NCBI GenBank assembly: GCA_029961685.1
Contig: JARWKL010000008.1
Coordinates: forward strand, 9,426,501-9,490,500
Reading direction: 5' to 3'
Length of the DNA stretch: 64,000 nt
Source: Aristolochia californica
Lineage: Eukaryota > Streptophyta > Magnoliopsida > Piperales > Aristolochiaceae
Position numbers and translations under genes: made by a program. The notes beneath the pieces are model-generated. The model was not told the origin of the DNA, searched no databases, and worked only from the letters and a program-made list of their open reading frames with translations. Shown piece by piece: positions 7,943-60,191 of this stretch (position 1 is the first letter of the stretch; the number at the start of each line of letters is the position of its first letter).

Positions 7943-9179
7943 TGCCATGAGATGTTGAAACAGGGTCTTATTCATCCCAGCCGCTCCCCGTTCTCTTCAT
8001 CTGTCTTACTTGTGAAGAAACATGATGGGACATGGAGGTTCTGCGTGGATTATTGGGAGTTGAATGTGCAGACAGTAAAAGACAAGTTTCTGATTCCGGT
8101 AGTGGATGAGCTCCTGGATGAGTTACATGGATCATGGTTATTCACTAAACTCGACCTCCGTTTGGGATACCATCAAGTCCAGATGCACCCCTCTGATATC
8201 GAGAAGACGGCATTCCGCACGCACCATGGCCACTTTGAGTTCGTCGTCATGTCGTTCAGATTATCTAATGCACCCTCCACTTTTCAAGCTTTGATGAACG
8301 AAGTATTTTGCCCCTATCTTCAAAAATTTGTTCTCGTATTTTTCGATGATATTTTGATATATAGCAAGTCGGTTGAGGAGCACTTGGCACACTTGAGGAT
8401 TGTTTTCAACTTCTTATGAGCACATCAGCTCTATTTGAAACATTCTAAGTATTCTTTTGTGGCTTCACATGTGGGGTATCTAGGACACATTATCTCACAT
8501 GAGGGGGTTACGGTGGATCCCGAGAAGATCCGAGCTATTCACGATGGCCGTAGCCACAGTCGTGTTCTGGATTACGGGGTTTTTTGGGTCTTGAGGGCTA
8601 CTACCGCAAATTTATTCAGAACTATGGGCCAATGGCAGCACCATTGACTAGTCTACTCAAGAAAAATTCCTTTATTTGGAATGAGGAGGCCACCACGTCA
8701 TTTGTGGCACTCAAAGCTGCCCTCGCATCTGTGCCAGTATTACAACTTCCCAACTTTGATGAATTGTTCATGGTAGAGTGAGACGTTTCGGACGTGGGCA
8801 TTGGGGCCGTTTTACAGCAGCTGGGCCATCCTATTGCGTATTTTAGCAAATAGTTGGTAGTTCGTCATCACAAGTTAGCAGCCTATGATCACGAATTGAT
8901 TGGGTTAGCCAAAGCGGTCCAACATTGGAGGCATTATCTATGGGGCCGGGCTTTTCTCATATGCACGGATCACTACAACCTTAAATTCCTACTAGAACAG
9001 CGTTTGACGACGTCCCCACAATAGCACTAGACCAGTAAGCTGCTGGGGTTTGACTTCTCGGTAGAGTATCGTGCGGGGAGATTAAATAAGGCGGTAGATG
9101 CCTTGTCACGGTGTTTTAAGGATCAGCAGTCGGTCTATTCGATCAGCCAGCCTAGATTTCTCATTTTGGACTTGGTGAG

Positions 9180-10290
9180 AGACGCACATGCCACTGACCT
9201 TGCACTGTAGGAACTACATCAGAAGATTTCGGAAGAGACAATGAATACGAAGTGGTCCATCCAGGATTCACTTATTATTACAAGCATCGGATTTTGAGTT
9301 GATTCCAGCTATTCTCTCTGCTTACCATGCCAGTACACACGAGGGGATACAGAAGACCTTGCATAGAATTCGAGCTAATTTTTACTAGCAAGCCATGAAA
9401 CCCTCTATTGCGACTTATGTGGGCGACTATCAGGTATGCCAGCGCAACAAAGCCGAGCACTTGACTCCTGCCGGTCTTCTCCAACCTCTGGTACGCAGGT
9501 TTGGGCCGATATTTCGATGGATTTTGTGGAAGGCCTACCTCTGTCCTCCGACAAATTTGTACTTTCCATGGTGGCTGATAGATTCTCCAAGTACGGACAT
9601 TTTATACCACTGGCTCATCTGTATACAGCAACATGGGTTGCTCAGACTTTCCTGGAGCAGATAGTCCGCTTACATGGCATTCCAGAATCCATTGTGAGTG
9701 ATAGAGATGCAGTTTTCACGAGCACCTTTTGCGCGGGAACTATTTTTCTTGAGTGGGACGAAATTGAAGTTCTCCTCCACCTATCATCCACAAACAGACA
9801 GGCAGACTGAGGTGGTGAACCGCACCATCGACATGTATCTATGGTGCTTGGTGGGGGTTTGTCCGCGGCAATGGGCTCAATGTCTTCCGTGGGCCGAATA
9901 CTGTTACAACACTTCGTTCCACTCTGCCTTGCAATCCACTCCTTTCTGGGTTATATATAGCCAGGATCCACCTCGCCTTCTCTCGTACAACCCAAGGTCC
10001 ACCCGCATGGACGCGATTGATCAGGCACTCATAGACCAAGATCTACTGCTATAGAATATCATAGAACAGCTACGATGCGCCCAAGCTCGGTTGAAGGATG
10101 TCTACGACAAAGGCCACCGTGAGGTCTCTTTTGAGGTTGGGGAGTATGTGTGGCTATGGCTCCAGCCCTATCGTCAACAATCTCTTGCAGACCTCCACGT
10201 CATAAGCTCTCTCCCAGATTTTTTGGGCCTTTTCCCATTCTTCGACGCGTGGGACCAGTCGCCTATCAGCTCAAATTATCGGACATAGCC
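9180..10290 (+). pseudogene. Ty3/gypsy integrase, frameshifted (G2)
   Basis: HHCC region: SAYHASTHEGIQKTLHRIRANFY and YQVCQRNKAEHL (9320-9455). The catalytic core carries all three acidic residues: ADISMDFVEGLPLSS, SIVSDRDAVFTS and TDRQTEVVNRTID. WAEYCYNTSFHSALQSTPF follows, then the C-terminal [21 protein letters not shown]. The text changes frame near 9520, 9745 and 10200. The length fits a full integrase, so apart from the frameshifts the domain is complete. Confidence 0.88.
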
Positions 10291-10565
10291 AAAATTCATG
10301 ATGTGTTTCATGTCTCTCTCTTGAAGCCGCATTCCGGGGCATAGCCTACATCCACTCCATTCCTACCACCGGTTGATAATGGCAAGGTTATTCTTAACCC
10401 AACTACGGTGTTATGCACGCGGCTAACCAATGACCATTGGGAGATTTTCATTCAGTGGATGGACACTGACCCCAACGCTGCAACATGGGAACATGTGGAC
10501 ATCTTCAAACAAGTCTACCCATCTTTTGAGCTTGAGGACAAGCTCTTTCTCCATGGGGAGGCAGA
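10291..10565 (+). pseudogene. Chromodomain at the C-terminus of G2 Pol
   Basis: After the linker [14 protein letters not shown] comes a chromodomain: WEIFIQWMDTDPNAATWEHVDIFKQVYP-type sequence (10438-10520), ending in the LEDKLFLHGEADVVD tail that runs to the 3' LTR. In plant chromoviruses this domain is thought to steer integration to chromatin. Stops near 10343 and frame changes upstream separate it from the integrase. Confidence 0.88.
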
Positions 10566-10629
10566 TGTTGTGGACTCAATAGCACACCGAGTCACACAAC
10601 AATGGACGCAACAACAACTCACTCAATAG
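10566..10629 (+). repeat. Truncated G2 3' LTR (64 bp)
   Basis: The sequence tgttgtggactcaatagcacaccgagtc...cactcaatagg matches the first 64 bases of the 884-bp 5' LTR, then breaks off into G1 integrase-tail sequence (aagtattatggtcccttt). Confidence 0.87.
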
Positions 10630-10979
10630 GAAGTATTATGGTCCCTTTTAGGTGATGGACCGCATTGGCATATTTGTCTACCGCTTGCAGCTTCCGCAAG
10701 AGGCAAGGATTCATAATGTGTTTCACGCCTTCCAACTGAAGGCCTTCCAGGGTGACTCTCCCTTGCTACACACACCTCTGCCCCCACTACATGAGGGACG
10801 TGTCCTTTCTACTCCAGCACAGGTGTTACAGGCTCGTCGCATTCAGGGTGATTGGGAGATACTAGTGCAATGGGCTGATGCTGACCCCAGTGACACTACA
10901 TGGGAGCCCTTAGCAGCTTTCAGAGTCCTCTACCCCTATTTCAAGCTTGAGGACATGCTTTTTCTCCAGGAAGGGGTGA
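10630..10979 (+). pseudogene. G1 integrase tail and chromodomain
   Basis: The KYYGPF motif (the integrase C-terminal end) is followed by DRIGIFVYRLQLPQEA and the IHNVFHAFQLK linker. The chromodomain follows (WEILVQWADADPSDTTWEPL, about 10855-10910), then the LEDMLFLQEG tail and a polypurine tract, ccaggaaggggtga, touching the LTR at 10980. It restores the reading of G1 on the far side of G2. About 200 integrase residues are missing between 3566 and 10630. Confidence 0.88.
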
Positions 10980-11375
10980 TGTTATTGACTCCAGAGCATC
11001 ACGAGTTATCAACAGGCATAAGAATTAAATTATGTCAATTTCCTTTTAATGTAATTCCATTTTGTTTTGGTTTGGTTTAGATGTAATATGGCATTAACCA
11101 AGTGACCCATGGGTCTAATTTGTATTTTCGTCCTCAACCCTATTTATGGGGATGTCAAGGTGAAGGAAAGTAAGTATTGAGAAAATTAGAATTAAATAGG
11201 TCAGATTCTCCCTCAGAGGTCTAGGTCGAGCTTCCTTCAAAACTCAATCATTCCATTCCAAATTCCACCATTCCACGTTCCAAATGCAAGAATCCTCTTC
11301 CAGCGTCAAGATTCAATGTGGATGGAAGAGAGGAAAGAAGGGTGACTCCATCCATGGCTCGGGAAGAACCTAACA
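10980..11375 (+). repeat. G1 3' LTR
   Basis: 396 bp from tgttattgactccag to ...gggaagaacctaaca; the last ~55 bases repeat positions 1-59. A ccctatttatgggg stretch at about 11138 is the likely TATA region. The 3' flank is gataa; its partner lies outside the window. Confidence 0.87.
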
Positions 11376-14719: not shown

Positions 14720-15240
14720 AAAGATATTTTCAAGCATGCAAATGATTCGTCTCTTTTTTTCTCTTGAGGAATAAGCTATTAAGTAATATAGGCATGTGGG
14801 TTGTCTGGTACGAAGTCTACTGAAAGTTGATTTGTGACAACATGTTGAGCGTTTAGACAGGGACAAAACAGCCAGTGACATGGTTAAGAGTTTGGAGTGA
14901 CTTGAGAAGAAAAGGAGATAAGAGGCAGTGAACAGCAGCCCGATCATTTTCAGTATTTGCCACCATAGGCATACATGACTTGGATTAGCGTGTTCCCACG
15001 ATGTCGGGAGGCCATGCCGGCTGTGTTCTCTTCACTTTCCGACTCTCCCTTACCACCTCCTACTGTGATTATTTGGTTCTTTCAATCAAGAAACCCTGGA
15101 AGACAATTAGAAAGTTGCCAATGTTATTTAGGTCACTTTAGATGTGTGCTAATAATTTTTCACAAGACTCGGAAACTTCAACCAATGGAGGGATCGGGCA
15201 AACCCTCCCCCCTCCTTTTCTTCGCAGAAGTTTTGTGAGG
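14720..15240. other. Upstream region of the peptide gene, no gene seen
   Basis: This is the presumed promoter side of the minus-strand RGF-like gene. Short open frames on both strands show no recognisable domain. No transposon terminus was seen. Confidence 0.5.
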
Positions 15241-15670
15241 GTTTAGAGTTTTAGGGTTTAGGGTTTAGGGTTTAAGCTTGAACCAGTTGTGTGCTATACA
15301 AGAGTCGATTAAACCAGTCGGTAGTTGGAACACCCTACACCCAGCTAGTACGAGTGTTAAAAGGGCCCATATCATCAGGAGTAGACATTTCTTGTCTGGG
15401 AAGAATCAAAACTTCAATCAAGAAGAATTAGCTAGAACGGCTAATTGTAAAGGTCTTTTGTAAGGGTTTAGGGTTTAGGGTTTAAGTTTAAACCGGTTGT
15501 GCACTATATAAGAGTCGTTTAAACTAGTCAGTAGTCGAAACACCCTACACCAAGCTACTACGAGTGTCAGAAGGACCCATATCATCAGCAGCAGACATTT
15601 CTCGTTTGGGAAGAATCGAAACTTTAACGAGGAAGAGTTAGCTAGAACGACTAATTAATTGTGAAGATCT
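15241..15670. repeat. Two tandem 210-bp repeats carrying telomere-like TTTAGGG runs
   Basis: Each unit opens with a run of three to four plant-telomere-type motifs (tttagggtttagggtttaag) ending near 15274 and 15484. It then continues with diverged copies of the same ~180 bases (gtgctatacaagagtcg / gcactatataagagtcg; acaccctacacc.agcta; catatcatcag; gaagaatta/gagttagctagaacg). The spacing between equivalent points is 210. No coding content is seen. Confidence 0.85.
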
Positions 15671-17430
15671 TCTTCTCAACTGAACCCAGACCCTCATCCA
15701 GGTGCAGGATGCACAAAAACTGAGATTGTGTCAAATCCAACAAACTAATCCAGCTTGATCGGCCAGCTTATGAATGGCGTTGGGGAACCAGGAAAGGGTG
15801 AAGGCTGATGTGCTTCCACGTCTTTGTTTCAGCGGCGAAAGGGTTGGAGACCTCACTTTCCTTGTCGTTGACTATGGGGCTTCTTCCCGTCGCCAACACC
15901 TGAATAATAGGAACAACGGTTGCCAACCTTAAATTGAAGGAGAAGAGTCACCTGATCGTGGTTTATTTCTTTTAATTTGTAGGTTATGTTATTATGATGT
16001 TTATGATGGGCAAACAATGATCAAACCTAATGGATTGGATTTAAGTAGAAGTCAATTTTAATGACATTGGACAGGCTAGATAGTCCTTTAAATTGTGGAC
16101 TTATTTGTACGTTCTTTATATTGATCAAGTTACTTCAATTCAAACCTTTTGACTTCCTCATTACAATCTCATTGTAATTCAACAACTTTTATCGTATCTT
16201 TATCTCTAGAAACTATTTAAATTGATCTAGTATCAAACCAAGTACTTGTACTTGGGCCTCTACTTAAACGTTTCATGTGTAAGAGCCATAATTAGCTCCC
16301 ACCGACGAGATGGAGCTTTAAAAGTAAAGAATTTGTGATTGTTACTAACGAAAGATGCACTAAAAAAATAATTTATGTTGGCTGAAAAAAGCCTAAAAAT
16401 AACTGCTAAAGGTTTTTTGGTGGAAATTTATGCTTAAAAAGGCCATCCGATAGAGGTATTACAATATAAAATAGATTTTCTATCGATAATTTGACATCAA
16501 AATTTTGCGGAAATTTATGCCCAATTTTTTAATTTTTTTCATTTTTTTAACAAAATATTCCTCTAAATATGTTTTATTGTTTTAAATAAAATCTTTTTGA
16601 AAAAACTCCTACTAAAAATAAATTTTATTTATTTTATATATATTTAAGAGAATTTTCTACCAAAAATGCTTTCATTTTTTAAATTATGCCTTTATTGAAT
16701 ATTCTATCAAAAATATTTAAAATTCTTTTTAAAAATATTTCTTAGTGAAATTTTCACCAAAACTGAATTAATTTATTTAAATAAAAATATTTATTGGCAC
16801 AAATCTGAACTAAAAACGTTTTAATATTCTTTTTTAGGTAAATCCTTGCCAACAACTTTTTTCTCTTTTTTTAAATTTTAACATTTTAATTTTATTCTTG
16901 TAAAAAATTTTAAAATATCCAAGAGTAATTTATATACATAAAAATGAGATTGAATGTACAATATCGTAAAAAAAGGTGTCTATAAAAAAAATATAGTCAT
17001 AGAAAAGTGTTCTTTCCAAATCATAAAACATGAAAAATATATATGCGTGACTATGTGGGAGGACCATGTGAGGAGCAATTTGGGTATGACGAAAAACCAA
17101 CATCGATTGTAAGAGGGAGTGTGTCACTAGAAACCATAAATTATCCCATCTAACTTACGTCAACCACTAGTTGTTGAATCGCTTGGTCTTGCGTTACCTT
17201 CATCATTACTAATCATTCATGTGTCCTCTCCTAGTTTGTTGCATTGAGCCCCTTGAATATCAACATGACTATTTCTTGTCATTTTCTAAGTTTTCACTTT
17301 GATATTCTCTTCATTTTGAAACAAAAGTAGTATGACATTCAAATAAAATTGTTATCGTTAAAATAAAAACTTCACTTGAAACTTCTCCCTTATGAAGTTC
17401 TTCTAATAGAAACCAAGGGGGAAGGGGGCA
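15671..17430. other. AT-rich intergenic sequence, no gene seen
   Basis: No coding region is recognisable. From about 16350 to 17000 the sequence is very AT-rich and repeats a loose gaaattttc.accaaaa motif on both strands, which may be sub-terminal repeats of an old DNA transposon. No paired termini could be found. The last bases before 17431 are a polypurine tract (accaagggggaagggggca). Confidence 0.5.
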
Positions 17431-17849
17431 TGAGAGCAAAAAGAAGAAATGCCTAACGGGCGTAGCGCTTGAGAGGCAAAAATGAAAAATATCTCCTATT
17501 CTTGATAGGATAAAATCCTACTAGATTAGATTTATCTTTAATTGATGTAATCTTTTAATTCCTAAAATCTCACCCTAGATTGATGTAACCCTTTCAATTT
17601 CCTAGAATTTGTCCTTAAGTTATGTAATCCTAGATGATTAAGGAGTTTATCAAATAATACTATAAATAGGGTTATTGGCTGAAGGAAGAATTCAGTCAAA
17701 CATTTTTCTAAATATCTCTTTACCTCTCAATTTTGTGCCTAACACCTCTCCTCTCTTTTCTCCTCTCTTATTCTCTCTTTTCCTTCTAGACCTCTCCTTA
17801 TCTTCCCCTCTTCCTTCCTTCTCTCTTATTCAAACCCTTTTAACGTCTC
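17431..17849 (+). repeat. F-family LTR, left part (split by element E)
   Basis: It begins with TG directly after a strong polypurine tract. It contains tactataaatagggttatt (TATA region, 17657-17675) and a CT-rich leader. It is interrupted at 17849/17850 by E and continues at 25196-25250, ending ...aagtctatca. A primer site, attggtatcagattag, follows at 25251. Total LTR length without E is about 474 bp. Confidence 0.7.
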
Positions 17850-18243
17850 TGTTATGGTCCCAGATCAACACGAAGATTCACCAGGGAGGATGAGGGTGAT
17901 AACGAAGAAGAAGGGAACGAAAGGGGAGAAAATCATAGAAACGAACGGAGAGGGACAACCCGGCTTTGAGGGAGTCTGTAACCTACGGCTCTAAGGGAGA
18001 CCGCAACCTAGGGTTCCGAGGGAACGCCGACCCAAGCTCAAAGAGGAGACCTCAAATCTTGTTTTAGATTAACTTTTCACTCCCCCATTCATCCATACGA
18101 TGCATACAAATAGTTCACGCCAACAAGAGTTTAGGCAAAAATTAAACCCAAATAGCATAAAATAGAGAATAAACTAAATAACTACTTAACTAACTCAACC
18201 ATGGTGTCTTAGCTTGACTCGGCTCACTATTTAGTCCATAACA
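17850..18243 (-). repeat. E 3' LTR
   Basis: 394 bp. On the plus strand it reads tgttatggtcccagatcaac ... ttagtccataaca. Next to it, at 18244-18295, lies acatctcacccctcctggag and an agcttgtcctagagctcg stretch, which on the minus strand is the polypurine tract and the leftover chromodomain tail. Confidence 0.83.
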
Positions 18244-18414
18244 TCTCACCCCTCCTGGAGAACGAGCTTGTCCTAGAGCTCGAAGGTAGAGTATGCCTGC
18301 AGAAACGGATCCTCCGTTGGTTCTCACAGTGAGTCGTAGGTTCCACCTGAAAAAATAAATAAATAAATAAATAAATTTTGTTGACCTTATAAGTACATGC
18401 AGATCACAGCACCG

Positions 18415-19610
18415 TCACCCAATTGGGAGGTTGGGTAGTTGAGTTGTCATTGCCCTGTAAAAGCTCTTGTCAGCGATGTTAGTAGAACGAGGACTGTAGT
18501 TAACACCATTGGCACGAGGCCTCTTTGGTTGAGGCTTGGCAACCTCTGCTGCTCTGTTCTTGTCAGCGATGTTAGTAGGATGAGGACTATAGTTAACACC
18601 ATTGGCACAAGGCCTCTTTGGTTGAGGCTTGGCAGCCTCTGCTGCTCTGTTCTTGTCAGCTTTAGCCTTCTCTACCTGGAGAACCCATTTCGGCAAGGTA
18701 TCCACAGGGTACTGCTCCTCAGCCTTATGCTCTTCAATGCATTTGATGACAGCTTTAAACGCAGCTAACTCTTGCTTGTTTGCTTCATTCTAGGCAGCAG
18801 ATGGGGATGTGCTTCCAGCTTTGATTTGTGAATTTTTCCTTGCATCCTTCAAGTAAGTTTTGAGTAATGGCACAGGTGCAAATTGTTCTTTGAGCTCAAA
18901 AGCATATGTCATGTTAACTGCTTCAATTTGCCGTCCACTATTAACCAAAACATCAATCACGCCTGGCATTTTATCCTGTAGATCAAGTGTCCTACAAAGA
19001 TCAGTTGTCTGCCGGCGACGAGCAACAGATGGGATGAGTATGCAAGTGTCATCCATATCAAATTCTGAGGCAATACCAAATGTCACTAAAAGGTGCAGAA
19101 ACGCATGAACCTCTAAGGAGTTTCCTGTAGAGCCACCAATATCAAGTTCATCCAACTTTGGTTTCCTTGCCTCAGCAATCTCTGTTGATTTTTCTCTGAT
19201 CTCTGAGGACACCACCAAGGAATCTGATTCAGCATGAGCTAATATAGGGCCCAGACACTCCAACATAATACAAGTTCTACGCAGACCCAAGAGGTTGGGG
19301 TCCCTCTTTCCATCAAGAGTAGGTGTTTCTGTGAAGGAGTCCTCTAGGGACTCCAAACCCAACCTTGCTGGATCTAAGGCACTCCTTAACACAAGTGGGG
19401 ACCTCCTCTTATGGCAGCAAGATTTTTCCTATTACCTGATATGAATTTATGGAGCCCCTTTGCATCCATTTCTACACATAATTTTGTCAGTGGTGTCTGA
19501 GGCTTCTTTTCCATATTTTCATCTTCAAACTTGACTTCCAAGTTGGATTCTTTTGAAGCTTTAACTTCTGAATTCTCTTCTATGACAGCATCGGTCAGTC
19601 CATCCTTGAA
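18415..19610 (-). pseudogene. Captured FRIGIDA-like (FRL) gene fragment
   Basis: The minus-strand text runs from about 19610 to a stop near 18415 and matches the FRIGIDA-like family of plant nuclear proteins. Readable parts: a linker ([17 protein letters not shown]), LTKLCVEMDAKGLHKFIS and NRKNLAAIR (19505-19400), a frameshift near 19400, then SALDPARLGLESLED, LRRTCIMLECLGPIL, NSLEVHAFLHLLVTFGIASE, DKMPGVIDVLVNSGRQIEAV and FAPVPLLKTYLKDARKNS. One in-frame stop (18790-18792) interrupts before KQELAAFKAVIKCIEEHK. The lysine-rich tail KPQPKRPRANGVNYSPR is tandemly duplicated. No intron interrupts the visible span. The N-terminal coiled-coil part is missing. It lies in the same orientation as E, downstream of the ATPase piece. 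Confidence 0.83.
18466..18651 (-). repeat. 93-bp tandem duplication in the FRL tail
   Basis: The block starting cttgtcagcgatgttagtag at 18466 recurs at 18559; the same cttgtcagc start appears again at 18652, where the normal sequence resumes. The period is exactly 93 (31 codons), so the frame is kept and the DKNRAAE.AKPQPKRP segment appears twice. Confidence 0.9.
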
Positions 19611-19675
19611 GTTGAAACCCTTGGGTTTTCATTCTGCCAATGTTTCTGAAGCTTGCCACCAGAAGCAGAGCTGTA

Positions 19676-19835
19676 GGTTTCTTCATCAAACAGTTGAACA
19701 TCCCAATTGATGAGCGTAGCTTGTAATACTTTGACCACGGCAATAGAGACATAGAGAGAGATTGGAATCAAGTAACCATAAAGCATAAGTGCCCTTCCAT
19801 ACCATTTCATGATCAAAATAATCAGACTCTTTGAA
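19676..19835 (-). pseudogene. Captured P4-type ATPase (phospholipid flippase) fragment
   Basis: The minus-strand frame reads [39 protein letters not shown]. This matches the membrane segment and following loop of plant aminophospholipid ATPases (ALA family), just before the conserved phosphorylation motif DKTGT, which is not present here. Only about 50 codons are seen. They lie between the MFS and FRIGIDA-like pieces, with a change of frame on the left. Signature [10 protein letters not shown] is expected; here the final E is A. Confidence 0.72.
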
Positions 19836-19839
19836 TGGG

Positions 19840-20316
19840 ATCTCTGTGTATACTGCAGCACGAAGACCAAGATAACCTTTGAGAATGCCAGCGACTGTGC
19901 CTCTGCTCAGAGGGAAGTTTCTCATATTTGTCACTAGTACGCCAGTCCCAAGCCATGCACTACGGTGAGTAGCAACAACCAAGGCCACCCATAACAGCCA
20001 GTAAGGCAAAGATTTAACATTCCGAACTGGGAGCCAGAGCACCCCGTACCCAAGAAAGCAAGAAAGAGTTCCGATCAAAAGCATAACCCATGAGGGGCAA
20101 TTTATTGCATACAATCCCAGAAAGTAGGCCCACGTTCTCGCCTAGATCGTTAGCAATTCCTAGGATCGTTAACTTCTATTGGGAGTAACCCAAAACAGAT
20201 TTTAGAGAATGCGAAAAGAGAGGAAAATTATAGGGGTTTACTGCAACAATTTGGACCCAAACTGCGGCTCCGAGGCCAACCCACGGAGGTCTAGTCCCCG
20301 CTTTCAGCACAGGCAT
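19840..20316 (-). pseudogene. Captured nodulin-like MFS transporter fragment (first ~160 codons)
   Basis: The start ATG is at 20316 (MPVLKAGTRPPWVGLGAAVW). The frame continues through PYNFPLFSHSLKSVLGYSQ, a stop at 20176-20178, KLTILGIANDLGENVGLLSG, a one-base shift near 20100, then LLIGTLSCFLGYGVLWLPV, ALVVATHRSAWLGTGVLVTN and [20 protein letters not shown], ending near AAVYTEI. This is the nodulin-like domain of the plant major-facilitator family: the first four or so membrane helices with the NFP.SRG..VGILKG signature. The remaining C-terminal exons are absent. The break after TEI probably marks an exon end or a capture junction. Confidence 0.82.
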
Positions 20317-21296
20317 TGCTACAAGCAGAAGCGGTCCCACAGCTCTTCCTGTCTGGTTTTCGTAGAGAAGAGCATCGGAAGGGAGTCCAGCAGTGGATGG
20401 AGCATCACCCCCACCCAGGATTCCAACTCCAAATTTCAATTTCTCAAGAATCTCATCTTCCTCCACCGCAACCCTTTCCAATTCGAAATTAAAATTTCGG
20501 GATTTCTTGGCTTTCCTGTTCTCAAATGGGTACTCTCCCCGTCGATTGAACGACGAGCTCTGCCCAACAGACCAACCAGCAGAATGGTTCCCACTGAAAC
20601 CGCCAGAAAATTTTTTTTCCTATTCCAGAGGTTGATTTTCCCAATTCTTACACGCTGGACAGAGGAATTCGAAGACTTACCTGGCATTGATATCAATGAG
20701 TTGAGGTATGTCTCGGTTGAGGGAGAAGTGGAGGCGATGCTAACCTTCCACCCCTCACCGTTGTCACCGAAATTCCTGACCGAAGGAGGCGTTGTCCGTC
20801 GGCGAACAACAACCGTGCCGACCAGGGATGCCTCTGTCCGAACTCAAACAGGCAAACCCAGTTGGGCCCGTTCCGCAGCCCGAAGAGTTTCGCTTTCAGC
20901 CCGATGTATCTCCTCTGTTTTGGTGCGCCAGGCACGCAACTCATCCCGGATTGATGATTTTCACTCTGCGCCTAAGGCTTCCATGTGCGATATTAGTTTT
21001 GCGCCCACTGCGGCTACCTTTGCGGCTAGCTCATCTCGGAACGACGCTGCGGCTATTTCATCTGGGAATGAAGAGTAGCTCATCCAGGAATCGCCGCCGT
21101 CTGATTGCAGAAGGTCTGAGTCCGAAATCTGATTTGTGTCCTTCTCAGCGATTTCTATGGTTCCCGGTGTCGGATTTGAGGTCGCCCCCAAATCTTCCGT
21201 AGGTACTTCGGCCGGTAAACAGGACGACGTGTTTGATTTTTCCGGGCCGTGGTCTGTTTTCCGTCCGAGACCGCATCTCGAGCGAATTCCTCTCTA
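20317..21296 (-). mobile_element. E internal sequence related to the C family
   Basis: The part at about 21200-21296 matches the C element near 59590-59690 (ccgtggtctgttttc, cgaattcctctc), and the match continues on the far side of the nested copia element at 24625-24770 (ttgatagccaatacttcaccc). Minus-strand ORFs at 20436-20696 include a hydrophobic stretch, FLAVSVGTILLVGLLGR, that I cannot assign; it may be another captured exon or chance. Confidence 0.6.
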
Positions 21297-22095
21297 TACT
21301 AATCGGTGTCTTGAATCCGATTATCCGACCCAATTCGAATATCCGGTTCGGATCCGCGTCGAGACCCGATTACGGGATTAAATCAGGAGCTCTCTAGATT
21401 TAAGGATCGGAGGTTGAGATGTCGAGAAAGGGGATTCTGTGTGCGAGAAAGAGGGTTTTCGGGAAGGAGGGCTTCATTGGGAGAAATCGGAGCTTGATTG
21501 TGTATCGGAGTTTGATTTGTATGCTTGAAGCCGCAAAGCTTTGTCTTTTCGCATTTAGTGGATTTTCGTCTCCTCCCGTAGATGTAGGTTGTCGCCGAAC
21601 CACGTAAGATCACTGCCTCTTGTGTTTTGTTGTTGATTTACTGATTTTATGTCCATATTGTGTTTCCTATGCGGTTTTATATGCTTCGTAGTGGTATACC
21701 CTTGATTATTATGCTCGGATTTAACCCCTAGTTATAACAATTGATATCAGAGCGAAGTTTTCCGGCGACGGTGCCGGATTTTCGTTTTTTTCTTTCTGTT
21801 TCCGCTGATGGGAAGAGAGCTCTCTGTCTCAAGCTTCCATTTGGTAGTTTCTGGAAGTGCCGAAAGGAGAAGAGAAATTTTTTTTTGTGGCACTGGTTGG
21901 TGGTGTCTGACAATGCCGAGGAGGAAGATTTTTTTTTTTTTTTTTGGCACTGGTTGGTGGTGTCTGACAGTGCCAAGGGGAAGAAGAAGAATTTTTTATT
22001 TTTTTTGGCATTGTTCGGTGTTGGATTCTGGAAGCGACGAGAGAGAAGATTCAAGCATCTTAGCATTTTTTGTGACCGAGGGTATTTTGGTAATT

Positions 22096-22936
22096 ATGAC
22101 TACGAAGTATATATTAGAGAAATTTGATGGGCAGATGAGTTTCAGTTTGTGGCGCGTGAAGATGTGTGCCATGTTAATACAATAAGGGCTCCACAAAGCA
22201 TTGAATGAAAAGGATAAGTTTCCAACTACGATGTCAAAAGAAGCCAAGGAGGATCTTGACATCAAATCTCTTAGTTCCATTCAGTTGTGATTGGCCGATG
22301 AGGTTTTGCGGGAAGTTGCAGATGAGATGATAGCAGCTAGTTTGTCGTTGAAGTTAAAGAGTATTTATATGACTAAATCTCTCACGAACAGGTTGTATTT
22401 GAAGCAACACCTGTATACTCTTCGAATGAAGGAAGGTACATCTCTCAAAGACCATCTTAATGAATTTAACAAGATTATTATGGATTTGAGAAATATAGAT
22501 GTTATCGTGGAAGATAAGGATCAAGCACTGATTGTGCTATACTCTGTACCCCCATCCTATGAGCACTTCGTTACGACTATGCTCTATGGGCACGATACCA
22601 TCTCTATGGAGGATGTTAAGACATTTTTATACTCTAACGAGTAGAGGAAGAAGGTGTCTACCAGTGGGAGCAAAGAGCAAGCAGATGGTCTGTTTGTTCG
22701 AGGACGAACGAAGGAGAAGGATTTTGGAGGCAGTGGCCGTTCTAGGCCGAAGTCAAAGGGGAAAGGGGGCAAGTGTTATTATTGTCATCAACCAGGTCAT
22801 TTTGCAAGAGACTGTCCAAAATTGAAAGAGAAGGAGAAAAGAGAAGAAAAGGAAGAGGTTGCTGGGTTTGTTGAAGATCATTCTGATGGTTCAGAATATG
22901 TTCTCACAGTTGAGGGTTGCACACTCACAGGGTGAG
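22096..22936 (+). pseudogene. gag: Ty1/copia gag with three in-frame stops
   Basis: One frame from the ATG at 22096 (MTTKYILEKFDGQMSFSLW) to the stop near 22936, about 280 codons. Copia gag (UBN2-type) features: [58 protein letters not shown] zinc knuckle follows, CYYCHQPGHFARDCP (CX2CX4HX4C), then an acidic/basic tail. Stops at 22183, 22288 and 22642 are single-codon changes; no frameshift is needed. The part after gag shows no protease, integrase or polymerase. Confidence 0.87.
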
Positions 22937-23453
22937 TGGATACTTTATTCGAGCCGTTCCTACCACATGTGTCCTATCTAGGATTTTTCTACGACATATC
23001 AGTCGGTAGATTGTGGTACAGTTTTGATGGGGATTTTTGCTCTGTAAGACTATTGGGATTGGAACTGTTCAGATCAAGATGTATGACGGTATAGTGAGAA
23101 TTTTGTAAGAAGTTCGGCATGTACCAGTTTTGTTTTGCTTTCTCTAGGTTCTCTTGATTACCTTGGCTATAGATACACAGCTGAAGGTGGAGTTTTTTGG
23201 AGGTCTGTATAGGGACACTGGTTGTGGTGAAAGGAAAAAAGGTTGGTAACCTTTTATGTGCTTCAGGGCAGTACAGTCATAGGTACTGTAGTAGGTACCT
23301 TATCTTCAGATTCAGTTTTTTGACACGACTCGTCTGTGGAATATTTGGTTAGGACATATCAGTGAGTAGGTGGAGTTTGAGGGTGATAAGTACAGCTACG
23401 CCGACATGGTCGCTTATGCATTACCTGTGGCAGAGACCGATCTATTGGGAACA

Positions 23454-23845
23454 TCATGGAGACTCGCTGCTGCTAGAGGCTGGAGTCGTGGACTCGCCGT
23501 TGCTAGAGGCTGGAGTCGTGGAGACTCACCGTTGCCTAGAGGCTGGAGTCGTGGAGACTCGCAGTTGCCAGAGGCTAGAGTCGTGGAGACTCGTCGCTGC
23601 TAGAGGCCGGAGTCGTGGAGACTCGCCGCTGCTAGAGGCTGGAGTTGTGGAGACTCGCCGCTGCTAGAGCTGGAGTCGTGGAGACTCGCAGTTGCCAGAG
23701 GTTGGAGTCGTGGAGACTCTCCATTGCCTAGAGGTTGGAGTCGTGGAGACTCGCCGTTGCCAGTTGCCAGAGGCTAGAGTCGTGGAGACTCGTCGTTGCC
23801 AGAGGCTGGAGTCGTGGAGACTCGCCGTTGCTAGAGGACTGAGAG
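23454..23845 (+). repeat. Minisatellite, about 11 units of ~33 bp
   Basis: Units of the form gttgccagaggctggagtcg + tggagactcgcc recur about eleven times with point changes and small indels. Because the unit is close to 33 bases, open frames appear by repetition (GWSRGDS, EAGVVETR, ESWRLVAARG). It lies between the gag gene and the 3' LTR of the nested copia element. Confidence 0.9.
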
Positions 23846-24770
23846 TCGTTGATTCCAGAGAGAGTCATTGCACCAGGGAAGTCTTCTAGTGGTTGCAGGC
23901 GGATGCAATATTGGCTGCAGGCAGAAGCAGAAGCAGAGGCAGAGGCAATAGTGGTTGCAGGCAGAGATTGCAGTGAGGTTTTCCACATGTTACTAGTAGA
24001 GGCAGTAGGGAGTCGTTGTTGTGAGAGACCGTTCAGTTTCCAGAGCCCTCTAACTACTGTGAAGTTGTCGCTGGTAGTGATGCTACTCAATTTAGATGCC
24101 CTAGGAGGCAAGGTGGAGAAGGCGATAGAGAAGTTCAGTCTTTCAGAGAGGAGTAATCGAATTCAAGCCAAGGTGGAGATTTGTTAATCGGGTGTCTTGA
24201 ATTACCCGACCCAATCCGATTACCTGACCGGACCCGATTACCCGGTTCGGATCCGCGTCGAGACCCGATTACGGGATTAAATCGGGAGCTCTCTGGATTT
24301 AGGGATTGGAGGAGGTTGAGACGTCGAGAAAGGGGATTCCGTGTGCGAGAAAGAGGGTTTTCGGGAATGAGGGCTTCATTGGGAGAAATCGGAGCTTGAT
24401 ATGTATGCTTGAAGCCGCAAAGCTTCGCCCTTTTTGCATTTAGTGGATTTTCGTCTCCTCCCGTGGATGTAGGCTGTCGCTGAACCACGTAAGATCGTTG
24501 CCTCTTGTGTTTTGCTATTGATTTACTGATTTTATGTCCATATTGTGTTTCCTATGTGGTTTTATATGCTTCGTAGTGTATACCCTTGATTATTACGCTC
24601 GGTTTTTAGCCTCTGGTTATAACAACTCCGTTGATAGCCAATACTTCACCCAGGAGGCACACCATTTCTGTATCTCTTCCACTGCAATGCTTGCAGCCAT
24701 TTCTTAGATTTGTCTGTGCATCGCCAACCATGGGTCTCCATAACACATCGTGTTCCCGCTCTGATACCAA

Positions 24771-25190
24771 TGTATTATGGTCCTAGATCAATACGAAGAT
24801 TCACCGAGGAGGACGAGGGTGATAACGAAGAAGAAGGGAACGAAAGAGGAGAAAATCATAGAGAAAAACGGAGAGGGATAACCCGGCGCTGAGGGAGTCC
24901 GTAACCTACGGTTCTGAGGGAGACAACATAGGGTTCTGAGGGAACGCCGACCTGAACTCAAAGAGGAGACCTCAAATCCTGTTTTAGTTTAACTTTTCAC
25001 TCCCCCATTCATTACCCTACGATGCATACAAATAGTTCACACCAACAAGATTTTAGGAAAAAATTACAAAAATGCCCCTGAGGCATATTTAAACCCAAAT
25101 AGCATAAAACAGAAAATAAACTAAATAACTACTTAACTGACTCAGCCATGGTGTCTCAGCCTGACTTGGTTCACTATTTGGTCCATAACC
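24771..25190 (-). repeat. E 5' LTR
   Basis: About 420 bp. On the plus strand it reads tgtattatggtcctagatc ... tttggtccataacc, followed by the duplication gtctc. The adjoining ctctgataccaa at 24759-24770 is the minus-strand primer site. Confidence 0.83.
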
Positions 25191-25195
25191 GTCTC

Positions 25196-25250
25196 TATTT
25201 AAACTTTCTTTCACTTTTAAAAAAGATTATGATCTCTCACAAGTCTATCA
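25196..25250 (+). repeat. F-family LTR, right part
   Basis: This continues the LTR cut at 17849 (tatttaaactttctttcac...aagtctatca). The next bases, attggtatcagattag, form its primer site, so F was a 5' LTR here. Confidence 0.68.
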
Positions 25251-25592
25251 ATTGGTATCAGATTAGTCCTTCTTAGTTCAACTAGATTACAAATACAATG
25301 TTTATGTAGATCATCGCCTTCACAAGAAGCATATTTTGTGTGACAATATTATAATTGAATGAAAGTTATTCAAGTCTAGTTTTAGAGAAAATAAATAACA
25401 AGTTTCAAGTCAATCATATCTCTGTATAAAGAGATATCTCTATAGGAGTTGCCAAGGGTCCTACTACTAAAGAAAACAATTAAAGCTCTTCGACTTTACT
25501 TTTTTGGAGTAAAATGAATTTTTATATTTTGGGCTATATTTGATGAGATATCACCATCAGAAGCTATAAAGATCAATGTTGCCAAAACTTTC
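25251..25592 (+). mobile_element. F/B-type non-coding internal sequence
   Basis: From the primer site to the start of the H LTR. It contains the atatctctgtataaagagata and aagttattcaagtctagtttt blocks that also occur in the B and H internals (about 45640-45830). No ORF of note is present. Confidence 0.55.
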
Positions 25593-26007
25593 TGTTGGGA
25601 GATGGGGCCAAGCCCATACGACCAAGGAAGACCCACACATCCTAGTGTGTGGAAGATGGACTCAAGCATACAAACCAAAGAGAAGGCCTACAAACACACA
25701 TAATGGTGGCATGATGGTAAATAAAGAGTCATCTCATAAAGATGACACTGCTGTAATTAGTTTATGATTTATGACTCTTAAGGGTGAAGGGTATTCTTGT
25801 AATGTTAATACTTTGATATCTATAAATACAACTTAAGGGGGGAAGGTTTGGAGAAGTCCATAACCCTAATCTTTCTCCTCTTTTCTCCAAATTCACCACT
25901 CTTTCTTTTCTCCTCCTAAAACCTTCTCTCCACAACAAAGTTCTTCTTCTCTCCCTTTTAATCCTCTTATATTGTGATTATACATCATGGAATTCTAATT
26001 TTCAACA
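25593..26007 (+). repeat. H-family 5' LTR
   Basis: 415 bp from tgttgggagatggggcc to ...attttcaaca, followed by tggtaccagagtaggg (primer site). It shares taaataaagagtcatctcat, a ctataaatacaactta TATA region and other blocks with the H LTRs near 50840-51215 and 53184-53530. Confidence 0.82.
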
Positions 26008-26219: not shown

Positions 26220-26801
26220 TGTTATAATGTGGGACCCATCATGGCCCCACAAGCTAGTGAGACCCACCATGAACTCGAGAGGTGTCAACAAGAGTCCTCA
26301 TACAATGTGGCTCTAACTAAGAGATAAGGAACATGTGCTGGAATTAAATAGAAGATTTGAAGATCAAGTGGGATCCACAAAGATACCACGAAAAATATCA
26401 TGTGGGACCCACAAGATAAGACCAAGTGCTAGCTCTCTAGCTTAATTCACGTCCTTAAAGAAAGTGTTTGTAGTTGAGTTAAATTAGTCTCATAAATAGA
26501 TAATGTAATCTTATCATAATAGGCTTATCTTAGAGAGTTTTAGTTATAATGTAATTAGGAGTCCTTAGGTTAGTTGTACATGGACTCTATCACCTCCTCA
26601 ACTGTAAATAGAGGTGATTGTAACTCGGAATTATTCAAGCAAGTTACTTTGTTTTTTCTCCTCTCTTATATGAAGTTCTCTCTCTCTAATCTCTCTTATT
26701 TTCCTCCTACTCTCTCTCTACCCGAGAGCTTTTCTCTTTTCTCTTTGTTCTTTCTCTCTCCCCTTGCTCGAGGAATTATTCATGGGGTCCTAAATTCAAC
26801 A
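26220..26801 (+). repeat. Copia 5' LTR
   Basis: 582 bp, tgttataatgtggg ... taaattcaaca. A probable TATA region is ctgtaaatagaggtg near 26602; a CT-rich leader follows. Confidence 0.86.
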
Positions 26802-27279
26802 TGGTATCAGAGCTACCAATTTAGGATCCCCATGATGCTCTATGAAGGCTCCTTATGAAGCAAGATTGAAGATCATGAGATAAATATTTATTTCTCATAT
26901 TATTAAATTTATGCTACAGGTTTTTGGTATTAAGAGGTGGTTTATAGATGTCATTATGCATGTTTTTATTTTATGAAATTATGAGAATATATGCATCTTG
27001 GATTATCTTTGATTAGAAGAGATTATCAAGGCAGTTTTGTCAGTTTGCACAATACTGTGACCGAGACCAATGCATATTGGATTTTTTTTATAAATCTGTG
27101 GGAACAAGATTCTCCGATAAAGAAGGAAGATTATGAGCCTTTTATGAGTTGTTATCCATTAAAATTATTTACTTAGCTTTTATACTAAGCATCTCCATTA
27201 ACCTAGTTGGTTATAGCCTTCCACTTGGTATTATTTTGATTACTTGATTGGAGAACTATTTTACTTGATTTTGCCTACT

Positions 27280-28161
27280 ATGGCTGAAGATAATATGAGT
27301 CACAAGAGTGACATACTCAGAATCACCACTGTACCCTTACTCTGGTCCACATTGGTTCGTCGGTTTTTTATCACAAAGGACCCAGTTGGTCATCTCACCA
27401 ATCGTGGACCACATATTGATGAAGATGATATATTCTATACCAAATGGTTAAAGAAGGATACATTGGTTATTAGTTGGCTTATCAACAGTATGAAAGAACA
27501 TGTCTCCAATAATGTCATTCATCTAGAGACGGCTAAAAAAATCTGGGAGACATGCGCCAAGTTGTATTCAAGCTCCAACAACTTACAAAGGTCATATGAT
27601 ATTTTACAACGGATGCTTACCACCAAACAAGGAGACAATATACATGAATATTTGGCCCATTTTCGAGGTTTTCTTCAAGAATGGAAACTTTCCCAGCCAA
27701 CCTCTATAGATATCTCTATCCAAGATAAATAGAAAGAGGCCTTGATAACTGCAATATGCCTTGCAAACATTAAACCGTATCTTGAAATTGCTAAGACTCA
27801 CCTTCTTAGCTCTTCCACGGTTCCCACTTTTGATGATGTATGTGTTACACTTCTCCGTATTCCAGATGTTTCTCCCTCTACTACTGAAATACCATTCGCT
27901 ATATACTTTGGACATAGGAGAATACCATCTGACCAAGGCCGAGGCAGATTTTATGGACGAGGAAGAGGAAGAGGTGGAAGGACTGGTTTTGATCAAACAG
28001 ATGGGAAGGAATGCACCTATTGTAAGGTATTTGGCCACACTAGAGACACATGCTTTCACCTAAAAGAAAGCCCTATATGTGGTAGATTGGGCCACTCTCG
28101 CGAAAGATGTTATAAAGCTAGTGAGAATAAGGCTAACCAAGCCTTAGTGAGTGATACATAA
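27280..28161 (+). pseudogene. gag: Ty1/copia gag, one in-frame stop
   Basis: ATG at 27280 (MAEDNMSHKSDIL). Capsid-like part: FFITKDPVGHLTNRGPHIDE, DDIFYTKWLKKD, LINSMKEHVSNNVIHLETAK, IWETCAKLYSSSNN. A stop at 27730-27732 replaces a residue before KEALITAICLANIKPYLE. A glycine/arginine-rich stretch (GRGRFYGRGRGRGG) is followed by a zinc knuckle, CTYCKVFGHTRDTC, and a second, defective one (PICGRLGHSRERC, first Cys lost). The same frame leads on towards the protease. Confidence 0.87.
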
Positions 28162-28960
28162 GAAGAGCAGTCTACCACAACAACTGCAAAGCATACTTTT
28201 ACTGATGAAGACTATGAACTATTCCAGAAAATGAAGACCATGATAGGGTCCTCCCCAAGTACTTCTTCACCAACCACTACCACCACCGCTTTAGGTATGC
28301 TTTTTGCGTCCTCTTCGTCCTGGATAATTGACTCAGGAACCTTCGAGCATCTTACAGGTAACAGACATCTACTATACTCAGTTTCTCCATGTCTTTCACA
28401 TAAATTTGTTACCATTGTTGATGGATCACAAACTAAATTTCAAGGGAAATGATCCAATTCTGTTACACCATCACTTTGGCTTAGAGATATCCTTTTCGTT
28501 CCTACTTTCCCTTTGAATCTTTTATCGGTTAGTTGGCTCACCAAACATTTTAATTGCTCTATAACTTTATCACCGACTTCATGTGTGTTTCGGGATTTTA
28601 CAATGAAGCGGGTGATTGGTGGAGGCGATGGTCAAGGGGGGTTCTACTACCTGGATGTGCCACAAATAAATACTGCATCCACCTACGACACTAAAACTGG
28701 TTATGGCACAACCGGTTGGGACATCCGTCCACCAAATCTCTTCATCAAATTTTTCCTAAAGCGCAGTCAGACCTTCATTGTGAAGCATGTCAAATAAGTA
28801 AACATAAGAGGTCTACATACTCACCTCGTCCAAAAATTAAAAGTGTCTCTCCTTTTTCGTTAATTCATACTGATGTTTGGGGACCCTTGAGTGTCTCCAA
28901 CATTTCTCAAGTGAAATATTTTATTACATTCATTGAGGACTTCACTCGTACCACTTGGTA
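28162..28960 (+). pseudogene. Ty1/copia protease and pre-integrase region, broken
   Basis: The aspartic protease active site is visible as SSWIIDSGTFEHLTGNRHLL (28315-28375). After a stop near 28450, LFVPTFPLNLLSVSWLTKHF and GGFYYLD (pre-integrase) follow in the same frame. A frameshift near 28715 leads to GHPSTKSLHQIFPKAQ and CEACQISKHKRSTYSPRPK, the HHCC-type integrase start. Confidence 0.84.
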
Positions 28961-29540
28961 ATTTTTGTTTAAAGAGCATTCTGAAATACCAATGATATTT
29001 AAATCTTTTCATGCAATGGTACTCACTTAGTTTGGGCAGAAAATTAAAGTCCTTTGATCCAATAATGCCAAAAAATACACATCCAAAGATCTTGACTCGT
29101 TTTGTCAAGAAAATGGCATTATTCATCAGACATCATGTGCCTACACCCCTCAACAAAATGGTGTAGCTGAACGAAAGAACAATCATATTCTTGAGGTAGC
29201 TTGTGGTTTACTATATGTCATGCAAGTTCCATACTTTTATTGGCCGCATGCAGTTCTTACCGCATGTTTTCTTATAAATTGGTTACCCTCTTCCGTTCTT
29301 CATAAAAAAATCTCCCTACTCTCTATTGTTACCTAATGATGATCCTTTTTCACTACCCTTGAGAGTCTTCGGCTATCATTTTTTTGTCCATAAACTTGAT
29401 CCCAAATCTATGAAGTGTATCTTCTTAAGATACTCTCGCACACAAAATGGTTATGTTTGCTATAGTCCCTCTCTTCAGCGTTTACTTGTGTCTAGGGATG
29501 TCACATTTTTTGAAGATTCTCCATATTATTCTGATAATGC
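28800..29540 (+). pseudogene. Ty1/copia integrase core, broken
   Basis: PFSLIHTDVWGPLSVSN and YFITFIEDFTRTTW carry the first catalytic aspartate. A region with several stops then leads to SSNNAKKYTSKDLDSFCQ-like sequence, where the second acidic residue of the D-D-E set appears changed (DN expected). HQTSCAYTPQQNGVAERKNN follows with the catalytic E. The GKNT-like tail reads LDPKSMKCIFLRYSRTQNGY and LVSRDVTFFEDSPYYS (29395-29540). Confidence 0.83.
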
Positions 29541-29894
29541 TCGTCTAGGTTTATCTTCAGTACTAGGTTCTCCTCGACCGGTTGTGCCCCATACTATAGA
29601 AACTACTCAACCCCTAAAAACACTGGCTGACACCACACCTACTGAGTTGTCGAATCCTACCAAGGTAAGTCCATCTTCTCCGATTATTTTTGGCCCAGAA
29701 TATGATACTCGTCCTATTGCAGTTAGGAAAGAGCCCAAATCATGCACCATGCCTTCTACTTCTCATCCCATAACAAACTTTGTGTCTCATCATCGTCTAT
29801 CCCCGTTTGTTGTCAATTTCTATCGGCTATTTCCTCCGTACCTATACCATAGTCCTATCAGGAGGCTCTCAAACATCCAAGGTAGAAGGCAGCT

Positions 29895-30870: not shown

Positions 30871-30889
30871 TATAAAAATCATGGATACT

Positions 30890-58270: not shown

Positions 58271-58763
58271 TGTTATGCCCCCGATCTAAGACGCGATGAA
58301 GACGATGAATAGGGAGGATTGTTGTGATGTTTTGAGCCTTCGAAGGGAGCTCAACCCTGGATCTCAAAGGGAGAATCCGACCTAGACCTCAGAGGGGAGA
58401 ATCTGACCTGATTAAAACTAATTAATTCAATGCTTGTATTTCTCATTACTCTTACCCCTTAAATAGGGTTGACCCGATTAGGGTTTACAATAAAATATTC
58501 TAAAAATACCCCTATAAATAAAATATTCCAAAAATACCCCTATAAATAAAATATTCCAACAATACCCCTATGGCCTAAAACTGAAATAAAATAAAGTAAA
58601 CTAAAGAAAACACTAAAATAATAATGTTATTGCGTGCATAACATTACACCCCCCTTGGAAGACGAGCTTGTCCTCAAGCTTGGAAGTAGTGTCTGTATGC
58701 CAACGTCTCCGTCGGTGCCGTAGTAGCATCTGCGATAGCTATGACTCCCCCTCTGTTTGCCCA

Positions 58764-58800
<37 letters not shown>

Positions 58801-60186
58801 GGGGCCGGTCCGAGTTAACCTGGGTTGACTCGGTTCAGGAACCTGGTCTGGCGTGCGACTCAGCGGACCGGGCCGATTAAATTTTCCTAAGTTAGGAAAA
58901 TTTAATCGGGACTCATCTTCTTCCTTCAGCAGCTCCCGAACGCTGCGGCCGGAAAATTCTTTCCTCACGGCACCGACGAAGGCTGGCGATGGATGTCTCC
59001 TTCCTCGCTCCTGGCAGTGACGGAGTCGCCTAATTTTTCGGTGGCGAATCGCAGCCTGTCGAGGCTTTGCCGCCTGGATAGTTTTCGAGACAGAGGGCTC
59101 TCAGAAACTTGTGAATCGTCATTGTTCAGCCTCCCGGAACTGAGATCCCTTGAGGAAAAGTCGATTACGACACCGACGAACTATTTTGCTTCGCCGGTAG
59201 CGAAGAGAAGCCCGTTGGGGCTTCGCCGCTGGGAGCATTGCCGAGACAGCGAACCTCTGTTTGTCAGCCCCCCGGAACAGAGACCAGTGAAAATTCCGTC
59301 AGAAATTTCGCCTACGGCGCCGATGGAATTTCCTATTCCCCTCCGATTTTGGATTTTTGGTCACCCTCAAATCCTCCAATGTCGACGATTTCAGAATTTC
59401 CTCTGTTAGGAAATCACCTCCTCGCTGCAACTTCGGTTCGGAGATACGCACGACGTCCATTGGGAAAGGGTGAGCCTCTTCCATTTTTGAAATTCCGGTG
59501 TCTCCGCCGTCTGATGTCTCGGTCGAAATAGTCATTGAAAGATTTTTCTTTTGTAGATTTGGATGGGGTTCCATTCGCCGTCAGTCGTGTTGGTGTGCAT
59601 CGGCTGGGAAACAGGACGCCGTGTTTGATTTTTCCTGGCCATGGTCTGTTTTCTTGTCCAAGACTTCTTCTCAAGAGAATGCCTCTCGATACTCCGTTGA
59701 TAGCCAATACTTCACCCAAGAGGCACGCCATTTCTGTATCTCTTCGGCTGCAATGCCTGCTGCAGCCATTTCTCCAATTTGTCTGTTCATCGCCAACTAT
59801 GGGTCTTCGTGGCCCATCGTGTTCCCGCTCTGATACCAAGATGTTATGCCCCAGATCTAACACGCGATGAAGACGATGAATAGATAGGATTGTTGTGATG
59901 TTTTGAGCATTCGAAGGGACCTCAACCCTGGACCTCAAAGGGAGAATCCGACTTAGACCTTAGAGGGGAGAATCTGATCTGATTACAACTAATTAATTCA
60001 ATGCTTGTATTTCTCATTACTCTTACCTCTTAAATAGGGTTCACCCTGTTAGCGTTTACAATAAAATATTCTAAAAATACCCCTATAAATAAAATATTCC
60101 AAAAATACTCCTATGGACTAAAAATGAAATAAAATATAGTAAATTAAAGAAAACACTAAAATAATAATGTTATTGCGTGCATAACA
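58271..60186 (-). mobile_element. Complete C element: non-autonomous, gypsy-derived, TSD cacat
   Basis: LTRs 58271-58643 and 59842-60186 are inverse copies of the C LTR (tgttatgc.cc.gatcta.. ... tattgcgtgcataaca on the plus strand). Perfect duplication cacat lies at 58266-58270 and 60187-60191. The minus-strand primer site is ctctgataccaag at 59829-59841, and polypurine text ttacaccccccttgg is at 58644-58658. The next bases (gacgagcttgtcctcaagctt) are, on the minus strand, the chromodomain tail LEDKL. The 1.2-kb internal region has no gag or pol. An (AT)n(T)n run lies at 58764-58800. Confidence 0.9.
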
Positions 60187-60191
60187 CACAT

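What the first reader, a model, noticed from the sequence alone, without database searches (positions are those of the whole stretch)
18415..20316. One retroelement carries pieces of three host genes: nodulin-like MFS, P4-ATPase and FRIGIDA-like
Element E (LTRs and gtctc duplication on both sides) holds, in its own orientation and head to tail, the first ~160 codons of a nodulin-like MFS transporter starting at its ATG, about 50 codons of an ALA-type P4-ATPase, and most of the conserved domain of a FRIGIDA-like protein. Their frames are readable but each is broken. Multi-gene capture by a plant LTR element without its own gag-pol is uncommon. The order and lack of visible introns suggest capture through RNA, possibly by read-through or template switching. 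Transcripts could give small RNAs against the parent genes, including a flowering-related family.
Basis: partly seen in the sequence, partly recalled or inferred. Interest (0 to 1): 0.85.

Follow-up and report, generated by a model that had tools for sequence, protein, structure and literature searches.

The report
Jumping element with three gene pieces
A decayed plant retrotransposon, probably from a pipevine (Aristolochia), carries joined pieces of three unrelated host genes, at least two of them in the form of spliced messages, a rare kind of gene capture best known from one maize element.

Summary
Window 17850-25190 is one minus-strand LTR retrotransposon (E): two LTRs (84% alike), GTCTC outside both, a primer site and a polypurine tract. 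Inside, all in element sense, lie an NFD4/nodulin-like MFS piece from its ATG (20316-19839), a short P4-ATPase piece (about 19792-19664) and most of a FRIGIDA-like 3 domain (19604-18451; 83% identical over 282 columns to Aristolochia californica FRL3). Profile or sequence matches support all three.

The new result is an intron test. Readings of other plants' genes break at three recurrent sites (one in the nodulin-like gene, two in FRL3), as at conserved introns; the cargo runs straight across all three. So at least two donors were probably captured as spliced RNA. E's ends match Ty3/gypsy ends in the window; no gag-pol was found in E itself. A relative (F, 58271-60186) shares the ends without this cargo; a Copia element sits inside E.

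Most likely mechanism: template switching between element RNA and host mRNAs. Maize Bs1 (three genes) is the known precedent; a maize survey of 425 gene-carrying LTR elements reported no multi-gene case. E looks like a rare new member of that kind, now broken. Parent genes, copy number and small RNAs could not be examined.

The parts
17845..17849 (.). target-site duplication GTCTC, left copy
17850..18243 (-). 3' LTR of E (TG...CA)
18244..18256 (-). polypurine tract AGGAGGGGTGAGA beside the 3' LTR
   Evidence: same place in other element ends
18244..18330 (-). remnant of the pol end of a Ty3/gypsy element (reads ...STFEL*DKLVLQEG*DVMD; pol-end reading of this motif recalled)
18451..19604 (-). 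FRIGIDA-like 3 piece (A. californica FRL3 residues 129 to 491); one stop, frame change near 19400, small gaps
18465..18650 (-). 93-bp tandem duplication inside the FRL3 piece
18958..18963 (-). site of FRL3 intron 1 of other plants (KMPG|VI), uninterrupted here
18787..18795 (-). site of FRL3 intron 2 of other plants (SPSAAQ|NEAN), uninterrupted here; the Q codon is TAG
19664..19792 (-). P4-ATPase piece, best-conserved part (profile match spans 19664-19846)
19839..20316 (-). NFD4/nodulin-like MFS piece, first about 160 codons from ATG; one stop (TAG), one frame change
19992..19997 (-). site of the nodulin-like intron of other plants (LPYWL|LWVAL), uninterrupted here
20317..20656 (-). unassigned stretch between element leader and nodulin-like ATG (open for 101 codons in frame with the ATG; no Pfam or PDB match)
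20657..21300 (-). E leader, alike to F leader
21300..24625 (+). nested Copia element with its own LTRs (about 21300-21740 / 24185-24625), Copia gag and zinc knuckle
24625..24757 (-). E leader next to the primer site, 86% alike to F
24758..24770 (-). primer binding site TTGGTATCAGAGC (tRNA-iMet type; label recalled)
24771..25190 (-). 5' LTR of E
25191..25195 (.). target-site duplication GTCTC, right copy
58271..60186 (-). F, a related LTR element with shared leader and pol-end and no match to E's cargo; TSD CACAT at 58266-58270 and 60187-60191

Best explanation
E is a non-autonomous derivative of a Ty3/gypsy element in which pieces of three host mRNAs stand where gag-pol would be. Shown: the LTR-element anatomy, the three host pieces in element sense, and uninterrupted sequence at three sites that look like conserved introns in two of the donor families. 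Inferred: host mRNAs were packaged with element RNA in a virus-like particle. Reverse transcriptase, copying from the 3' LTR toward the 5' end, jumped from the pol end to FRL3 mRNA, then to P4-ATPase mRNA, then to the nodulin-like mRNA. It copied that to about its start codon and jumped back to the element leader, and the product was integrated with a 5-bp duplication. The jumps may have been made in one cycle or in several. After insertion the copy decayed, and a Copia element landed in it. Present function: most likely none.
For: LTRs, TSD, primer site and polypurine tract in the right places. Host pieces. Intron sites: nodulin-like, 19 of 32 interior ends and 24 of 35 interior starts fall at query 207-209 (120 listed proteins of 187 hits); FRL3, 17 of 35 interior ends at 156-158, 8 of 35 at 209-211, and 6 of 19 interior starts at 154-158 (67 proteins). 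Many readings past the nodulin-like site run LVS or LVK, as a GTAAGT-type donor would give. E's 3' end matches five other stretches of the window; two of these lie behind an RVT_1 domain. The nodulin-like piece starts at its ATG, as expected if copying ran close to the mRNA 5' end.
Against: No parent-gene DNA of this genome could be read, so the intron argument rests on other plants. The other interior ends (nodulin-like 13 of 32, three of them running on past the same site; FRL3 10 of 35) and starts (11 of 35; 13 of 19) fall elsewhere, and the second FRL3 site has one nearby start only (query 217). Some proteins counted are annotated gene models. The P4 piece had no intron test. About 340, 45, 60 and 120 bp around the pieces are unassigned. 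No second copy with this cargo was seen, because the genome search did not complete.
Confidence: 0.8

Rival explanations
1. Same RNA route, but the pieces were taken up one after another over several replication cycles rather than in one chain of template switches.
For: Bs1 is described as three distinct transductions (passage). Serial capture needs only one rare event per cycle.
Against: Nothing here separates the two. Head-to-tail order with short unassigned joins would also suit one chain.
Confidence: 0.5
2. The three pieces form a chimeric retrocopy (for example LINE-made) that inserted into an already integrated, cargo-free element.
For: Tripartite chimeric pseudogenes from LINE template jumps are reported in a fungus (title and abstract start only). 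F shows that relatives without this cargo exist.
Against: The FRL3 end is cut mid-message without poly(A). The only homopolymer run of 8 or more A or T in 18244-21300 is at 20611; it reads as A in element sense but lies upstream of the identified cargo. The cargo stands where gag-pol should be. A target duplication around the cargo was not searched for by script.
Confidence: 0.12
3. DNA-level capture (Helitron, Pack-MULE or repair filler) of gene fragments into an element.
For: In maize, Helitrons and other DNA transposons capture gene fragments more often than LTR elements do (passage).
Against: Three intron-like sites are uninterrupted; all three pieces are in element sense; the frame is an LTR element.
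Confidence: 0.04
4. Read-through (3' or 5' transduction) of neighbouring genes.
For: It is a known route for retrotransposons (passage) and would also give spliced sequence.
Against: It would need three genes in a row and would not give fragments cut mid-gene in the place of gag-pol (inference).
Confidence: 0.04

Closest known systems
Bs1 of maize
   Same: LTR element with segments of three host genes, none with a full-length ORF (passage of PMC13317346)
   Different: Different donors and host. Bs1 is Copia-like (recalled); E has Ty3/gypsy ends. Bs1 is reported to give a transcribed and translated chimeric gene (same passage); E's frames are broken.
Gene-carrying LTR elements of maize B73
   Same: 425 intact LTR elements with gene fragments, at least 189 captures (passage of PMC2774510)
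   Different: That survey reports no single element with fragments of more than one standard nuclear gene, under its conditions
LTR-mediated retrocopies (template switching with host mRNA)
   Same: mRNA-derived sequence taken into LTR-element cDNA; several switches said to be possible in theory (passage of PMC5408686)
   Different: The cases in the passage are mostly retrocopies of single genes, Bs1 excepted (my reading)
F element at 58271-60186
   Same: Same leader and pol-end/PPT, minus strand
   Different: No match to E's cargo; its own frames were translated, and one leader reading was scanned against Pfam (no match)

Membership tests
LTR retrotransposon | direct LTR pair | tested here: met
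   354 of 418 columns identical
LTR retrotransposon | short target-site duplication | tested here: met
   GTCTC on both sides
LTR retrotransposon | primer site and polypurine tract in the right places | tested here: met
   TTGGTATCAGAGC at 24758-24770 and AGGAGGGGTGAGA at 18244-18256, both minus strand
LTR retrotransposon, autonomous | own gag-pol | tested here: not met
   the gag found is in the nested Copia on the other strand; no gag or pol family among the E-strand frames that I scanned
Ty3/gypsy derivative | sequence match to gypsy ends | tested here: met
   3' end aligns with five stretches of the window; two lie behind RVT_1 at 7880-8416, with a Tf2-type SH3 match between them
Ty3/gypsy derivative | own pol with gypsy domain order | not testable with these tools
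   no pol found in E
Bs1-like multi-gene transducer | pieces of several unrelated host genes in one element | tested here: met
Bs1-like multi-gene transducer | pieces lack the donors' introns (as a defining feature: recalled) | tested here: met
   three sites in two donor families, judged from other plants; donors of this genome not read; P4 not tested
Bs1-like multi-gene transducer | cargo-bearing element in more than one copy | not tested
   genome search unanswered
Bs1-like multi-gene transducer | intact chimeric reading frame | tested here: not met
   stops and frame changes in the nodulin-like and FRL3 pieces; expression not testable

The most novel reading that the evidence does not exclude
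A Ty3/gypsy family in Aristolochia repeatedly swaps its gag-pol for strings of spliced host mRNAs through chains of template switches, so that E is one of a series of mRNA-recombining elements, and its transcripts once fed small RNAs against FRL3 and the other donors.
Probability: 0.12. Interest if true: 0.75.

Novelty: new member of a known kind. Interest (0 to 1): 0.52.

Why it matters
In what I could search, capture of several host genes by one LTR element is close to a single-example phenomenon (Bs1). A second, structurally clear case, with Ty3/gypsy ends, in a magnoliid host and with three apparently spliced intron sites, lets one ask how often reverse transcriptase chains several host messages together and whether such chimeras seed new genes.

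Tried and rejected
Host genome search for parent genes and other copies: the same request was sent ten times and never answered. Parent identity therefore rests on proteins. Small-RNA action could not be tested.

The 101-codon open stretch before the nodulin-like ATG was suspected as a fourth captured gene: no Pfam, no PDB, and no listed hit that covers it (alignments of hits that reach the ATG begin at about query 100-105; two begin at 90). Plus-strand frames of that region gave no convincing family. It stays unassigned.

P0304 and P0305 were first taken for Aristolochia exons (a notebook entry, says so). They are 98% like oil palm FRL3 (P0304 to P0009; P0305 to P0005), so they only show that the sites recur in another lineage.

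Matches at E above 0.02, and the PDB match at E 0.13, were taken as chance, except that the weak Chromo match (E 0.036) is mentioned as weak. A chance origin of the cargo is excluded by the E-values. A single host gene at this locus is rejected because three unrelated families lie inside one LTR/TSD frame. The Bs1 papers PMC2899935 and PMC160511 are not held.

Full report
What was checked. The finding claims that one retroelement holds pieces of three host genes. I read 15000-26000 and 58000-60700, compared the window with itself, aligned the repeats, scanned frames against family libraries and the PDB, and used all three protein searches.

The element. LTRs lie at 17850-18243 and 24771-25190; the aligned part has 354 identical of 418 columns and 34 substitutions, 28 of them transitions. 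GTCTC stands outside both; the right LTR ends in CC where the left ends in CA. The primer site TTGGTATCAGAGC (24758-24770) and the purine run (18244-18256) are on the minus strand, so E is a minus-strand element (the iMet label is recalled). A plus-strand Copia element (its LTR copies differ by 32 substitutions over 428 compared bases), with a Copia gag (E 6e-25) and a zinc knuckle (E 4e-7), interrupts it at about 21300-24625. Its LTRs (7.5% different) are a little closer than E's (8.8%), the direction expected for a later arrival, but the difference is small and was not tested. F at 58271-60186 (LTRs 87% alike; TSD CACAT) shares E's leader and pol-end and is continuous at the place where the Copia sits (near 59691-59693).

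What kind of element. E's 3' end aligns with five other stretches of the window, F among them (BLAST E 8e-10 to 6e-5). Two of them (10.5 and 10.9 kb) lie behind an RVT_1 domain at 7880-8416 (E 2e-24); the frame 10652-11077 between them has a Tf2-type SH3 match (E 1.7e-6, just under its cut-off) and a weak Chromo match (E 0.036); two frames in between (9379-9807, 9698-10051) gave no convincing family. The reading FELEDKL as the end of pol is recalled. I take E as a Ty3/gypsy derivative without gag-pol. E's leader (21215 to about 20657) is alike to F's: local score 88 against a maximum of 68 in 50 base shuffles.

The cargo. Nodulin-like: PF06813 E 7.1e-32; homologous from the ATG at 20316 to 19839; the best relatives are NFD4-like MFS proteins at 70-76% identity (full-length proteins were outside that search's length limits). 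P4-ATPase: TIGR01652 E 6.8e-12, far below the family's whole-protein score as any short piece must be, and solved P4-ATPases at best E 8e-5; Pfam gave nothing for this frame. FRL3: PF07899 E 1e-58; best hit Aristolochia californica FRIGIDA-like protein 3 at 81% identity and 98% coverage, the next hit at 64%, so the host is most likely an Aristolochia (inference). The alignment has 83% identity over 282 columns with a one-codon gap, and 76% over 74 columns with an eight-residue gap.

Introns. The protein database holds many unnamed proteins, apparently read from DNA (sources lgn, ena, jgi). Where an intron lies, such readings stop or start. Against the nodulin-like query, 120 listed proteins of 187 hits gave 32 interior ends, 19 of them at query 207-209, and 35 interior starts, 24 of them at 207-209; three more ends (212, 215, 216) run across the same site. 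Many run on as LVS or LVK, as a GTAAGT donor after ..YWL would give. Against FRL3, 67 proteins gave 35 interior ends, 17 at 156-158 and 8 at 209-211, and 19 interior starts, 6 at 154-158; the second site has only one start near it (217). Two oil-palm-like readings (P0304, P0305) begin their homology to FRL3 proteins at the first site and stop at the second. The remaining ends and starts are scattered, some being annotated gene models. A soybean study gives FRL genes two or more introns (passage of PMC11932152), without positions. The cargo is uninterrupted at all three sites. I could not see the Aristolochia genes themselves, and could not test the P4 piece.

Decay. The nodulin-like piece has one in-frame stop and one frame change; FRL3 has a frame change near 19400, small gaps, one stop and a 93-bp duplication whose copies are 95% alike. 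Both stops are TAG. At these places several relatives have Q (P0122 in the nodulin-like piece, though P0121 has H; three of four FRL3 proteins aligned), so a C-to-T change of CAG is a simple cause (inference, parent codons unseen).

Mechanism. Reverse transcription of an LTR element starts at the primer site, jumps to the 3' LTR and runs toward the 5' end (established knowledge). Reading E in that direction gives: pol end, FRL3 (residue 491 to 129), P4 piece, nodulin-like piece back to its ATG, an unassigned 340 bp, element leader. A review says that micro-similarity allows such switching and that several switches are possible in theory (passage of PMC5408686). Whether it was one cycle or several is open.

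Known precedents. Bs1 of maize carries segments of three host genes, described as three transductions (passage of PMC13317346). A maize survey found 425 intact LTR elements with gene fragments, at least 189 captures, and no element with more than one standard nuclear gene under its conditions (passage of PMC2774510). In rice and sorghum a survey of LTR-captured genes did not mention my terms for several genes in one element (find in PMC3726574). My searches for other multi-gene LTR captures (two returned no paper) showed no title or abstract start describing another LTR case; I saw listings and the passages named, not whole papers, and most subscription journals are not held. E is thus, as far as I could see, a rare new member of a known kind.

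Unknown. Copy number, expression, small RNAs and parent DNA are unknown because the host genome search did not complete.

Noticed in passing
58271-60186: Relative of E with TSD CACAT and no match to E's cargo; its inside beyond the shared ends is unassigned.
   Followed up: partly
20317-20656: Unassigned stretch with a 101-codon frame open into the nodulin-like ATG; could be a fourth captured piece or 5' leader.
   Followed up: partly
23457-23849: Minisatellite of about 12 copies of a 32-bp unit inside the nested Copia element, after its gag.
   Followed up: no
15238-15656: AGGGTTT telomere-like repeats within a 210-bp unit duplicated in tandem, copies 86% alike.
   Followed up: no
26220-31983: Direct repeats of about 600 bp, 87% alike and about 5 kb apart, possibly another LTR element.
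   Followed up: no
7880-11077: Decayed Ty3/gypsy sequence with RVT_1 and Tf2-type SH3 match; ends at 10.5 and 10.9 kb match E's end.
   Followed up: partly
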